24,543 bases of DNA from a virus: positions 1-24,543 of IMG/VR virus record IMGVR_UViG_3300027770_001961; one strand, written 5' to 3'. Positions 1,620 through 23,313 of this stretch are shown one piece after another (the first letter of the stretch is position 1; each line of letters starts with the position of its first letter). The position numbers were made by a program, and so were the translations under genes. Under the pieces are notes generated by a model that saw nothing but the letters and a program-made list of their open reading frames with translations, did no database searches and had not been told where the DNA came from.

Positions 1620-2323
1620 TGTACGATATATTTTTTATAAGTTATAATGAACCCAATGCAGATCAAAATTACTCTCTATTGAAACAAAGATTTCCATTGG
1701 CTCAAAGAGTTCACGGCATAAAAGGCATTCAACAAGCACATATCAGAGCTGCCACATTGAGTTTGACCAAAATGTTTTGGGTGGTAGACGGTGATGCAGT
1801 GATTGAAGACGATTTTATGTTTGATTTCCAAGTGGATCCTAATGAATTAAATGCTGTGCATGTGTGGAGAAGCCGAAATCCCATCAATGAACTGGAGTAT
1901 GGTTATGGCGGAGTAAAATTACTGCCCAAAAGACTCACGATGAACATGGATCCCAATAGAATAGACATGACCACCAGCATATCTAATAGGTTTAGAGCTA
2001 TGCATGAAGTATCCAACACCACTGTGTTCAATACAGATCCATTCAACACATGGAAAAGTGCTTTTAGAGAGTGTGTCAAGCTCAGCAGCAAGGTAATCGA
2101 TCGTCAGGTGGACAAAGAAACTGAAAAAAGATTATTGATTTGGTGCACAGTGGGAGATGATAAACCATGCGGAGAGTATGCCATTGCTGGAGCACTGGCA
2201 GGCAGAGTGTACGGCACGGACAACCAAGGTAATTCAGATGCTTTGAGAATGATCAATAACTTTGAATGGTTAAAATTAGTATTTGTGGGACAATTTCCAC
2301 ACATGGAGAAAAAAATATTATGA
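1616..2323 (+). CDS. Glycosyltransferase-like protein with DGD motif, 235 aa (second of a tandem pair)
   Basis: This is a shorter paralog of the preceding gene. It begins directly with the strand 'YDIFFISYNEPNAD', has 'RVHGIKG' near residue 31 (compare RVHGIFG in the paralog), and the metal-binding-type motif 'VVDGDAVIEDD' with D58-x-D60. The C-terminal block 'TWKSAFRECVKLS...LLIWCTVGDD...AIAGALAG' aligns with its neighbour. It starts at 1616 within an ATGA overlap with the stop of the preceding gene; the next codon is also ATG, so the start could be 1619. It ends in another ATGA overlap with the radical SAM gene. Compared with the first copy it lacks roughly 70 residues, mostly between the DGD region and the C-terminal block and at the C-terminus. 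A sugar transferase role is inferred from the DxD motif only. Confidence 0.6.
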   Translation: MMYDIFFISYNEPNADQNYSLLKQRFPLAQRVHGIKGIQQAHIRAATLSLTKMFWVVDGDAVIEDDFMFDFQVDPNELNAVHVWRSRNPINELEYGYGGVKLLPKRLTMNMDPNRIDMTTSISNRFRAMHEVSNTTVFNTDPFNTWKSAFRECVKLSSKVIDRQVDKETEKRLLIWCTVGDDKPCGEYAIAGALAGRVYGTDNQGNSDALRMINNFEWLKLVFVGQFPHMEKKIL

Positions 2324-3321
2324 TAGATACCAACATTCCATTTGATAAAATTGTAAACTTTGGTCAACGCACCATGTTGAACAGTAAATTGTTTTCTGTG
2401 AGTTGGATCTTGGCTCGTTTTTGCAACTATGATTGTTCTTACTGCTGGCCTTATGCCAAAAGCAAACAGAAAGATCACAGACCATTGTCAGTTTACACAG
2501 GAGTGGTGGATGAAATCAAACGACAGGCCAGACAGAATGGATTCACAGACTATCATTTCAGTTTTTCAGGTGGAGAACCCACTGCCTACAAAGATTTTTT
2601 ACAATTGGTACAGCATTATAGTGCTGATACTGCTCCAGAATATCAAAGTATTCACATGACCACCAACCTAAGTCCTTCAGAAAAGTGGTGGGAAAGATGG
2701 TTGGAAGCCACAAAAACATTGAACCGCAGAAGTATCACTGCCAGCTTTCATGCTGAATTCGCTGATGAACAAAAATTTGGAGATAAAATATTACTGTTGA
2801 TGAAGAATAATGTGTTTGTCACAATTAATCAAGTGATGGTGCCTGATAGATTTGCTGAATACTATGATAGATGTGCAAGATTCCACTCCAGAGGTATCAA
2901 TGTTACACTGAAACCACAGAGTGATCCCACAGCAAGTTTTGTTATTGAAGGTTATACTCGAGATCAACTGAACACTTTACAAACAGGATTTCCTCAACGC
3001 ATACAAGAAGGTGAAAATTACAAAGATTTATTTCAAATTGAGATGATGGATGCTCAAGGCAACAAGTATTACATGGATCAAGCAGAGAGATTCAATGCTT
3101 TTGGCTTCAATAAATTCAAAGGATGGCACTGTAATGCTGGATATCAGAGTTGTGTCATTAGAGAACCAAACGGAGAAGTCAAAAGAAGTTACAGTTGTCA
3201 TGATCAACCACTGGGTAACATAGAACAAGGATTCAAATTGTTTGATAAACCAAAAGTTTGTATAACTCCCACTTGTGTGAGTTCAGCAGATTCAAAAATA
3301 CCCAAGGCTCGACATGTATAG
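2320..3321 (+). CDS. Radical SAM protein with C-terminal SPASM-like cysteine cluster, 333 aa
   Basis: This protein has the radical SAM signature C35-x3-C39-x2-C42 ('CNYDCSYCW'), which would hold a [4Fe-4S] cluster that cleaves S-adenosylmethionine, and the SAM-contacting 'SGGEPT' at residues 83-88. The C-terminus carries extra cysteines (C271, C278, C293, C314, C319) after 'FKGWHC' and around 'LGNI', resembling an auxiliary-cluster (SPASM/twitch) domain. The genes at 8171 and 9057 share this C-terminal layout, so the three form a paralogous group. ATG 2320 was chosen because it follows a GGAGAA ribosome-binding site and overlaps the upstream stop as ATGA; an in-frame ATG at 2266 lies inside the glycosyltransferase gene. 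Substrate unknown. SPASM enzymes often modify peptides, but other substrates are known. Confidence 0.85.
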   Translation: MIDTNIPFDKIVNFGQRTMLNSKLFSVSWILARFCNYDCSYCWPYAKSKQKDHRPLSVYTGVVDEIKRQARQNGFTDYHFSFSGGEPTAYKDFLQLVQHYSADTAPEYQSIHMTTNLSPSEKWWERWLEATKTLNRRSITASFHAEFADEQKFGDKILLLMKNNVFVTINQVMVPDRFAEYYDRCARFHSRGINVTLKPQSDPTASFVIEGYTRDQLNTLQTGFPQRIQEGENYKDLFQIEMMDAQGNKYYMDQAERFNAFGFNKFKGWHCNAGYQSCVIREPNGEVKRSYSCHDQPLGNIEQGFKLFDKPKVCITPTCVSSADSKIPKARHV

Positions 3322-22159: not shown

Positions 22160-22164
22160 TAATC

Positions 22165-23313
22165 ATGGAAGATACAAAAACCACTAGTTTGTGTGAAATC
22201 TGTTATAGACATTGCGAAGCAGTGAGAGAAACCAGAGATTCCGGAGTGTATCTAACTAAAACTTGTGTTGAACATGGTATTAAAACAATCATGGTGGAGA
22301 GAGATGTAAAATTTTATAAAGAATTGCAATATGATGTTTCAGGTTACAGCATACCTCAAGGTATCATGATAGAAGTCACTGACAAATGCAATTTAAATTG
22401 CCCACATTGTTATCATAAACCTGACAATAAACAAACAGATAAACCTATTGAACAAATATTAAATCAAATTGAACATAAATTTCATCCAGCAGCTGGTGCT
22501 GTGATATTGGCTGGTGCTGAACCCACTGTGCGTAAAGATTTGCCAGAATTAATCAGTCAAACTAAATCATTATTAAAAAGATTAGGTAGACCTGAAGATG
22601 TATGCATATTGACCAATGGAGTAAAGTTATCTGACAGAGCATGGGTAAAAGAAATTGCTGCTGCTGGAACCACCATGGTTATGATTGGTTTAAATCATCA
22701 CTCCTATCAAGGAAAAACTGTGCATCAAAAACAATTGCAAGGCATAGACAATTGTATTGCTGAAGGAATTTTTGTATACTATGTGGGATATACATTGGAA
22801 AGTTTGGATCATATGGAACATGTTCTGGAGGAAATACAATCTTTAGGTCAGAAAAGTTGGCAATACAGAATAAGAGCTGGTTCAGACATAGGCAGATCTC
22901 CCGATGAACCAAGATTTTATCTCAGTGATCACGTTAAATTGATCAAACAAATTTGTGATCGTAAAGGTTGGACCTGGGAAAAATTGCCAGCAGATGACAA
23001 TCTTTATCATTACATGGTGAATATCAATGGCATAACTCATAGAATCATACAGTGGAGTGATGTTAAAACTATTGACTTGGAACAATTACAGTGTGGACCT
23101 TGGTGTGACTTTGTGCCTGGCAAACCAGTCACAAATTTTTTACATCAAATTATGTTGCGTGATGCTGCTGTGAATAAAAAAATGAAATTACAAGATACAG
23201 TTGAAGTTAGATACACATTCCAACCAAAAAATATAAATTACAAAATGTCACAATGGACTGATCAAAGTTGGGCAGATTGTAAAATTAAACAATCAAAGTT
23301 GATTGAAAAGTAA
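22165..23313 (+). CDS. Radical SAM protein with tetraether-synthase/MJ0619-like N-terminus, 382 aa
   Basis: The N-terminal domain has C10-x2-C13, C17 and 'GVYLTKTCVEHGIKT' (27-41) with C34 and H37, followed by a 'VKFYKEL' helix. This resembles the cysteine-rich start of the radical SAM family that includes archaeal tetraether synthase (Tes) and MJ0619-type methylases. The catalytic motif is C75-x3-C79-x2-C82 ('CNLNCPHCYH'), and the usual GGEPTLR is 'AGAEPTVRKDL' (116-126). C310 and C314 ('QCGPWCDF') lie in the C-terminal part. Those relatives join or methylate unactivated carbon, so a lipid, cofactor or other hydrophobic substrate is possible. It starts 5 bases after the kinase-fold-like gene with no evident Shine-Dalgarno. 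Confidence 0.75.
   Translation: MEDTKTTSLCEICYRHCEAVRETRDSGVYLTKTCVEHGIKTIMVERDVKFYKELQYDVSGYSIPQGIMIEVTDKCNLNCPHCYHKPDNKQTDKPIEQILNQIEHKFHPAAGAVILAGAEPTVRKDLPELISQTKSLLKRLGRPEDVCILTNGVKLSDRAWVKEIAAAGTTMVMIGLNHHSYQGKTVHQKQLQGIDNCIAEGIFVYYVGYTLESLDHMEHVLEEIQSLGQKSWQYRIRAGSDIGRSPDEPRFYLSDHVKLIKQICDRKGWTWEKLPADDNLYHYMVNINGITHRIIQWSDVKTIDLEQLQCGPWCDFVPGKPVTNFLHQIMLRDAAVNKKMKLQDTVEVRYTFQPKNINYKMSQWTDQSWADCKIKQSKLIEK

What the first reader, a model, noticed from the sequence alone, without database searches (positions are those of the whole stretch)
2320..23313. Seven radical SAM enzymes of four architectures in one phage island
Genes at 2320, 3314, 6910, 8171, 9057, 10013 and 22165 each have an intact C-x3-C-x2-C. 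They fall into four types: three with the C-terminal GW-C cysteine block, one with GNLGDP and a CC motif, two with an N-terminal twitch domain, and one with a Tes/MJ0619-like start. So many Fe-S radical enzymes in 21 kb of phage DNA is unusual and suggests a dedicated biosynthetic or modification pathway, possibly the new system in this window. The product is unknown.
Basis: partly seen in the sequence, partly recalled or inferred. Interest (0 to 1): 0.85.

Follow-up and report, generated by a model that had tools for sequence, protein, structure and literature searches.

The report
Phage island of paired radical enzymes
A stretch of T4-type aquatic phage DNA carries seven real radical SAM enzymes, most of them in two-gene units beside sugar-transferase genes, and it probably builds or edits an unusual sugar coat late in infection; phages rich in such enzymes were already known, but this paired layout and its wide conservation were not found described.

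Summary
All seven genes match Pfam Radical_SAM above cut-off, keep CX3CX2C and (six families tested broadly) their auxiliary cysteines, and evolve under strong purifying selection. The set is kept together: 35 of 35 distinct relatives of gene 8171 carry 6910 and 10013 nearby. Related viral records hold 2-25 radical SAM genes each.

The four types are not a loose mixture. Six genes form three co-directional overlapping pairs: 6910>8171 and 10013>9057 (each N-twitch then C-terminal-twitch enzyme, convergent and paralogous) and 2320>3314. Fusions elsewhere join such partners.

The island lies beside tail genes of a T4-type phage. Two operon heads carry the late-promoter-like motif found before virion genes. 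A core neighbour (1616, paralogue 711) models as a GT-A glycosyltransferase; an amidinotransferase, class III aminotransferase, QueC-like protein and two to six 2OG oxygenases accompany it. In cultured phages, radical SAM genes sit among GT8 genes (Vibrio K566), a sugar aminotransferase (Pelagibacter Mosig) or an amidinotransferase (Campylobacter CP220).

Best reading: late, iron-dependent tailoring of a glycan on virion or host surface (0.55). Rivals: peptide/tail-protein modification, DNA modification, metabolic help. Radical SAM-rich T4-like phages are known since 2010: a new variant, not a new kind.

The parts
143..718 (+). unknown protein, poorly conserved, in 18/18 RS3314-anchored islands
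   Evidence: no Pfam or PHROGs match; co-occurrence
711..1619 (+). GT-A-type glycosyltransferase-like protein, paralogue of the next gene
   Evidence: 36% identity to 1616; shared DxD columns; fused to the 1616 type in L180
1616..2323 (+). GT-A-type glycosyltransferase, core of the island
   Evidence: AlphaFold2 pLDDT 90.9; top Foldseek PDB hits are GT-A glycosyltransferases, E about 2e-4, TMq 0.3-0.45; D58 and D60 invariant
2320..3321 (+). radical SAM enzyme, C-terminal GW-C twitch-like domain; first gene of pair 2320>3314
   Evidence: Pfam 53.8 bits; radical SAM Cys and C271, C293, C314, C319 invariant in 55 sequences
3314..4303 (+). radical SAM/SPASM enzyme (GNLGDP, CC motif)
   Evidence: Pfam Radical_SAM 41.4 and SPASM 23.3 bits; next gene after 2320 in 47/57 distinct relatives
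4296..4901 (+). probable SAM methyltransferase
   Evidence: weak Methyltransf_25 (E 0.098); related to a putative methyltransferase of phage Mosig (29.5%, 9e-13); 18/18 co-occurrence with 3314
4894..5562 (+). Asp/Arg beta-hydroxylase-type 2OG-Fe(II) oxygenase
   Evidence: PF05118 43.1 bits, cut-off 22.6
5549..6901 (+). unknown 450-aa protein, coupled to the hydroxylase
   Evidence: no Pfam or PHROGs match; fused to the hydroxylase in L180, 651 aa
6910..8178 (+). N-twitch radical SAM enzyme; first gene of pair A
   Evidence: NF033640 320.8 bits, cut-off 170; dN/dS 0.053
8171..9067 (+). GW-C (C-terminal twitch) radical SAM enzyme; second gene of pair A
   Evidence: Pfam 61 bits; follows a 6910 orthologue in 42/50, another GW-C enzyme in 4 more; AlphaFold2 pLDDT 84.3, Foldseek CteB, EpeE, SkfB, BlsE, viperin
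9057..10016 (-). GW-C radical SAM enzyme; second gene of pair B
   Evidence: Pfam 50.7 bits; follows 10013 orthologues in 37/50; fused to a 10013-type enzyme in L187
10013..11503 (-). N-twitch radical SAM enzyme; first gene of pair B
   Evidence: NF033640 387.2 bits; 35/35 co-occurrence with 8171
11418..12050 (-). SGNH-hydrolase-like protein
   Evidence: reading of the N-terminal motif (FGCSYAYG); no Pfam match; relative in phage Mosig (35%, 7e-8)
12038..12859 (-). QueC-like PP-loop ATPase, head of the minus-strand operon
   Evidence: SGGADS and SC...CGKCFWCQER motifs; weak PHROGs QueC-like match E 4.6e-4
12860..12921 (.). divergent promoter region with a late-promoter-like motif (CGATAAATA on the minus strand)
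   Evidence: motif before 12/24 orthologues of 12038 (2.0 expected) and 17/32 of 12922 (3.2 expected)
12922..13593 (+). possible Asp-hydroxylase-type oxygenase, plus-strand operon head
   Evidence: PF05118 16.6 bits, below cut-off 22.6; HAD...H; in 35/35 anchors
13586..14221 (+). unknown protein, paralogue of 21470-22159
   Evidence: 26% identity, 1.7e-7
14214..14762 (+). possible 2OG oxygenase
   Evidence: HWD...H motif only; no Pfam match
14770..15321 (+). NAD-dependent epimerase-type SDR
   Evidence: PF01370 21.7 bits, cut-off 20.9
15318..16388 (-). amidinotransferase
   Evidence: HsvA 2e-26, SxtG 6e-23, StrB1-type 1e-21; terminal GGTHCCT; 27.7% to the CP220 amidinotransferase, 2e-27
16393..17019 (-). 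2OG-Fe(II) oxygenase
   Evidence: PF13640 32.3 bits, cut-off 27
17000..18118 (-). class III aminotransferase
   Evidence: PF00202 121 bits
18674..19270 (-). possible 2OG oxygenase
   Evidence: HND...H motif only
19281..20087 (-). possible 2OG oxygenase
   Evidence: HxD...H motif only
20680..21387 (-). acyl-desaturase-like membrane protein
   Evidence: histidine boxes by eye; 29% to the FA_desaturase-domain protein of Mosig, 3e-23
21470..22159 (+). paralogue of 13586, operon head before 22165
   Evidence: AATAAATACA upstream; next to 22165 in seven further records
22165..23313 (+). radical SAM enzyme with N-terminal HMPTM zinc ribbon
   Evidence: Radical_SAM 66.7 bits, Zn_ribbon_HMPTM 42.9 bits; 68-88% identical copies at the same place in seven further records
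23340..24473 (-). tail protein bordering the island, with upstream late promoter TATAAATAC
   Evidence: weak PHROGs tail matches; TATAAATA at 24507-24514 minus

Best explanation
This is the hypervariable island beside the tail genes of a T4-type phage. It encodes a late-expressed pathway that builds or edits a glycan. GT-A glycosyltransferases (1616, 711) transfer sugars; the radical SAM enzymes, working as co-expressed N-twitch > C-twitch pairs, perform hydrogen-abstraction chemistry such as epimerisation, dehydrogenation or deoxygenation on the sugar or the glycan; the oxygenases, PP-loop amidation/ligation enzyme, aminotransferase, amidinotransferase, methyltransferase and SDR add further groups. 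The product most likely ends on the virion (tail) or on the host envelope. Shown: the families, the pairing, co-conservation, purifying selection, the tail-adjacent setting and the promoter-like motif. Inferred: late expression, the glycan substrate, the reactions, and where the glycan sits.
For: Core neighbour 1616 models with high confidence and its best structural matches are GT-A glycosyltransferases, with an invariant DxD; a fused homologue gives a weak Glyco_tranf_2_3 match. Genes 1616, 711, 2320, 4296 and 6910 are present in 18/18 distinct 3314 anchors. In cultured Vibrio phage K566 N-twitch radical SAM genes interleave with two GT8 genes (32.6 and 47.4 bits, cut-off 24.3) and a weak GT4-like gene. 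In cultured Pelagibacter phage Mosig a DegT/DnrJ/EryC1 sugar aminotransferase (252 bits) and an annotated carbamoyltransferase stand among the radical SAM genes, a few kilobases from a tail fibre gene. CP220's cluster is followed by two genes annotated as nucleotide-diphospho-sugar transferases. Around cellular N-twitch enzymes the most frequent neighbours are other radical SAM proteins (18/100) and GT2 proteins (6/100). The late-promoter-like motif before virion genes also precedes two island operon heads. A relative is T4-type and its island follows tail-fibre genes.
Against: No nucleotide-sugar synthesis enzyme (nucleotidyltransferase, 4,6-dehydratase) was recognised in the window. The best structural matches of 8171 are mostly peptide-modifying enzymes (CteB, EpeE, SkfB), with BlsE and viperin also close. 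Foldseek TM-scores for 1616 are modest (0.3-0.45). The oxygenase at 4894 belongs to a family best known for acting on protein. The class III aminotransferase and the amidinotransferase occur in only some relatives.
Confidence: 0.55

Rival explanations
1. The radical SAM enzymes and 2OG oxygenases modify a ribosomal polypeptide, RiPP-like: epimerised, cross-linked or hydroxylated side chains on a phage tail or adhesin protein, or on a secreted peptide.
For: Foldseek places 8171 next to the peptide enzymes CteB, EpeE and SkfB; paired radical SAM enzymes are known in peptide systems (HxsB/HxsC, from general knowledge; only weak sub-cut-off matches here); Asp/Asn hydroxylases and radical SAM enzymes coexist in the island; the promoter-like motif is shared with tail genes.
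Against: No room for a separate precursor gene: 99% coding, largest gap 82 bp. No radical SAM protein passes a peptide-maturase equivalog cut-off. Glycosyltransferases, not peptides or transporters, recur next to these enzymes in cultured phages and cellular genomes.
Confidence: 0.22
2. The island hypermodifies phage DNA, for example a 7-deazaguanine or glycosylated base, to escape host nucleases.
For: The PP-loop protein has a QueC-like motif and 8171 gives a sub-family match to the QueE-like PHROG (1.8e-11); T4-type phages are known to glycosylate DNA (general knowledge).
Against: QueD is found in 4 of 28 related records and in none of the window's closest relatives; no thymidylate-synthase/dCMP-hydroxymethylase family member in any of 28 records; 8171 matches viperin, MoaA and tungsten-cofactor maturase models as well as QueE-like ones. 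The records are fragments, so absence is not final.
Confidence: 0.08
3. An auxiliary metabolic cluster that helps host metabolism (cofactor, lipid or iron-sulphur metabolism) during infection.
For: 22165 carries an HMPTM-type zinc ribbon; a desaturase-like gene; marine surveys usually label radical SAM genes as auxiliary metabolic genes (PMC5332604).
Against: No complete recognisable pathway; gene content varies between relatives; motif and position tie the island to tail genes; Fe-S A-type carrier in only 2 of 28 records.
Confidence: 0.12

Closest known systems
Radical SAM clusters of Campylobacter phages CP220/CPt10 (Firehammervirus; PMC2853527)
   Same: T4-like phage, exchangeable cluster of five radical SAM genes with an amidinotransferase and annotated sugar-transferase genes nearby; radical SAM proteins of the 3314 and GW-C types; amidinotransferase homologous to 15318 (27.7%, 2e-27)
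   Different: In the CP220 stretch examined no protein was best-matched by the N-twitch profiles, hence no N-twitch > GW-C pair; radical SAM identities only about 22%
Pelagimyophage hypervariable host recognition cluster (PMC7029224), e.g. Pelagibacter phage Mosig
   Same: Near tail fibres; radical SAM genes of 3314 and GW-C types, Asp hydroxylases, desaturase, methyltransferase and SGNH-like relatives
   Different: Fewer radical SAM genes (2 found by Pfam in the record), no N-twitch pair; the VrlC/gp14 borders were not checked here
Vibrio jumbo phage K566 radical SAM-GT8 cluster
   Same: Four N-twitch-type radical SAM genes, one overlapping a GT8 gene
   Different: No GW-C partner found; low identity; an annotated lipid A acyltransferase PagP lies nearby
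T4-like Tara genome TARA_ERS488813_N000010 (PMC5332604)
   Same: T4-like with 12 radical SAM genes
   Different: Discussed there as Fe-S metabolism; its gene order was not examined here

Membership tests
Radical SAM superfamily | Radical_SAM domain with CX3CX2C | tested here: met
   7/7 over Pfam cut-off, 7/7 motif, conserved in relatives
NCBIfam NF033640 twitch domain-containing radical SAM | Score above 170 bits over the full model | tested here: met
   6910: 320.8 bits; 10013: 387.2 bits; the other five do not meet it
CP220-type phage radical SAM module | T4-like phage, several radical SAM genes clustered with an amidinotransferase | tested here: met
   T4 type shown on a relative, not in the window itself
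CP220-type phage radical SAM module | Same radical SAM subfamilies | tested here: inconclusive
   3314 and GW-C types shared; N-twitch enzymes best-matched only here
Pelagimyophage host recognition cluster | Lies beside tail-fibre genes in a T4-type genome | tested here: met
   tail gene at 23340 and tail genes before the island in G005
Pelagimyophage host recognition cluster | Bounded by VrlC and gp14 | not tested
   border genes were not searched
Deazaguanine DNA modification | QueC, QueD, QueE, FolE and a transglycosylase together | tested here: not met
   QueD absent from the window's closest relatives; FolE and transglycosylase not searched; records are fragments
RiPP maturation cluster | Precursor peptide gene next to the maturase | tested here: not met
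   99% coding, largest gap 82 bp
RiPP maturation cluster | Maturase equivalog match | tested here: not met
   all matches far below curated cut-offs
HMPTM / MJ0619-type methyltransferase (22165) | N-terminal zinc ribbon plus radical SAM domain | tested here: met
   PF23545 42.9 bits, cut-off 27
HMPTM / MJ0619-type methyltransferase (22165) | Methylates a hydroxymethylpterin | not testable with these tools
   needs enzymology

The most novel reading that the evidence does not exclude
Phages have evolved a two-enzyme radical module, an N-twitch and a C-twitch radical SAM enzyme made from overlapping genes and acting as one complex or relay, found in records with up to 25 radical SAM genes in 77 kb, that creates radical-edited sugars for decorating virions or host cells late in infection: a virus-borne glycan chemistry not yet seen.
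Probability: 0.25. Interest if true: 0.85.

Novelty: new variant of a known kind. Interest (0 to 1): 0.6.

Why it matters
Radical SAM clusters have been noticed in T4-like phages since 2010 without any experimentally assigned function in the papers read here. This work shows that in many aquatic phages the core is a co-conserved set with a fixed pair architecture, near-invariant cluster ligands, late-promoter-like motifs and glycosyltransferase partners, and it points to cultured phages (Vibrio K566, Pelagibacter Mosig, Campylobacter CP220) with related gene sets in which glycan chemistry can be tested directly. If right, phages make sugar structures by radical chemistry, which bears on receptor use, superinfection exclusion and the iron cost of infection.

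Tried and rejected
Megablast of the window against cultured phages: no match. tblastn of 10013, 8171 and 1616 against cultured phages: only weak or no matches. Profile search of the 1616/711 and 5549 families against PDB sequences: nothing useful. I first labelled 13586 and 21470 as kinase-like; the alignment shows no kinase motif, so the label was dropped. A canonical T4 late-promoter count over the whole window is no more than chance (2 found, 2.95 expected); only placement upstream of operon heads, tested on relatives, is informative. A sigma-70 promoter scan of 8800-13200 found fewer sites than shuffles. Fe-S assembly gene partner: found in 2 of 28 records, rejected as part of the core. 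QueC/QueE deazaguanine idea tested and not supported. A paper on aquatic jumbo phages (PMC12619734) does not mention radical SAM. Host prediction was not attempted in depth; the MAGs with phage-type islands (L171, L180, L187) may be mis-binned phage contigs, so they give no host.
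Full report
OBSERVATION. The window is a whole 24,543-base viral record. All seven genes are present with one CX3CX2C each, all pass the Pfam Radical_SAM cut-off, and no further radical SAM gene is found in the record. 2320, 8171 and 9057 are paralogues sharing the C-terminal GW-C block. In relatives CX3CX2C is kept in 55/55, 45/45, 56/56, 43/44, 29/31 and 50/50 distinct sequences for 2320, 3314, 6910, 8171, 9057 and 10013, and the auxiliary cysteines are near-invariant. Median dN/dS is 0.05-0.15 for the radical SAM genes (one comparison only for 22165).

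CONSERVATION. Scans of IMG/VR gave 347 relatives of 8171 and 458 of 3314, on contigs of up to 134 kb. Among 35 distinct 8171 loci with 7-kb flanks, 6910, 10013 and 12922 occur in all, 3314-type in 33 and 9057-type in 30; among 18 distinct 3314 loci, 2320, 711, 1616, 143, 4296 and 6910 occur in all. These loci are the closest relatives found, so the figures describe the lineage rather than all phages. 22165 lies beside the tail gene at the far end of the island and is kept at 68-88% identity in seven further records. Twenty-eight related records hold 2-25 radical SAM genes each; the nearest cultured T4-type relatives by DNA polymerase that were searched hold 0-4 in 349-490 kb.

ANATOMY. The island is 99% coding, with 18 of 28 junctions overlapping. 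The radical SAM genes form ordered pairs: 6910 is followed by a GW-C enzyme in 46/50 distinct relatives (42 the 8171 type), 10013 by 9057-type in 37/50, and 2320 by 3314 in 47/57; of all viral N-twitch genes, 88 of 114 are followed by a GW-C enzyme. Pairs A (6910>8171) and B (10013>9057) are convergent in the window and paralogous (27.8% and 25% identity). Fusions elsewhere join a 6910-type to a 10013-type domain (L172, 876 aa) and a 10013-type to a 9057-type domain (L187, 735 aa); 711 with 1616 and 5549 with the Asp hydroxylase are fused in L180. This is Rosetta-stone evidence for joint action; physical complexes are inferred.

PARTNERS. 1616 folds confidently and its best PDB matches are GT-A glycosyltransferases, with modest TM-scores; D58 and D60 are invariant across 1616 and 711 relatives. 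15318 is an amidinotransferase, 17000 a class III aminotransferase and 16393 a 2OG oxygenase, 4894 an Asp/Arg hydroxylase. 12922, 14214, 18674 and 19281 have only HxD...H-type motifs or a sub-cut-off match, so two oxygenases are secure and four possible. 12038 is a QueC-like PP-loop protein. Membership in RiPP or deazaguanine clusters was tested and not met.

SETTING. The 116-kb relative G005 has a T4-type DNA polymerase, baseplate hub/lysozyme and tail fibre genes shortly before its island; its polymerase is nearest to jumbo phages of Sinorhizobium and Agrobacterium. Upstream of spaced genes in three relatives the motif TAAATACA is enriched (9 against 0.8 expected), including before tail-type genes. 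In the window it precedes the tail gene (TATAAATAC) and the 21470 operon (AATAAATACA), and a variant (GATAAATAT) precedes the 12038 operon. Over relatives the motif precedes 12/24 orthologues of 12038 (2.0 expected) and 17/32 of 12922 (3.2 expected), but not the operon-internal genes beyond expectation. The sequences are related, so these counts are not independent, and expression was not measured.

CULTURED AND CELLULAR RELATIVES. Vibrio phage K566 has four N-twitch-type radical SAM genes interleaved with two GT8 genes and a weak GT4-like gene. Pelagibacter phage Mosig has radical SAM genes with a DegT-type sugar aminotransferase, an annotated carbamoyltransferase, hydroxylases and a desaturase near a tail fibre. 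Campylobacter phage CP220 has five clustered radical SAM genes, an amidinotransferase homologous to 15318 and two annotated nucleotide-sugar-transferase-like genes. Around cellular N-twitch enzymes, mainly in Bdellovibrio-like genomes, radical SAM (18/100) and GT2 (6/100) proteins are the most frequent neighbours.

INTERPRETATION. Glycan tailoring with virion-associated timing fits all of this best (0.55). The peptide rival is real because 8171 resembles peptide enzymes in structure. The DNA-modification and metabolic-help rivals are weaker. Radical SAM-rich T4-like phages are prior knowledge (PMC2853527; PMC5332604; PMC7029224); the N-twitch > C-twitch unit and its combination with GT-A genes were not found described in the library searched.

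Noticed in passing
L160-L163 (record G025, 76.8 kb): 25 radical SAM matches in one 77-kb viral record, including one protein with a clear B12-binding domain (708 aa, Pfam) and long ones that look B12-dependent; several gaps of 0.5-1.1 kb (for example 7443-8607) were not searched for small genes.
   Followed up: partly
L160:16276-19185 (-): A 969-aa version of the 1616 glycosyltransferase preceded by several roughly 100-aa degenerate repeats that resemble the glycosyltransferase domain without its DxD.
   Followed up: no
L171, L180, L187: Phage-type islands (1616, 3314, N-twitch, GW-C relatives) sit in contigs binned into Gammaproteobacteria, Neisseriaceae and Rickettsiales MAGs; probably mis-binned phage, possibly prophage.
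   Followed up: no
window 12038-12859: QueC-like PP-loop ATPase with a C-terminal zinc-knot motif; its substrate in a T4-type phage without QueD nearby is unexplained.
   Followed up: partly
L242:3562-4011: Vibrio phage K566 carries an annotated PagP (lipid A acyltransferase) a few kilobases from its radical SAM-GT8 cluster.
   Followed up: no
L172:13465-16095 (-): Bdellovibrionales protein fusing two complete N-twitch radical SAM units in one 876-aa chain.
   Followed up: partly
window 24152-24205: 24-bp tandem repeat (2.2 copies) inside the tail gene.
   Followed up: no
L173, L174 (Bdellovibrionia): Cellular loci with N-twitch radical SAM genes, an amidinotransferase relative of 15318 and an Asp hydroxylase relative of 4894 together: a possible cellular counterpart of the phage island.
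   Followed up: no
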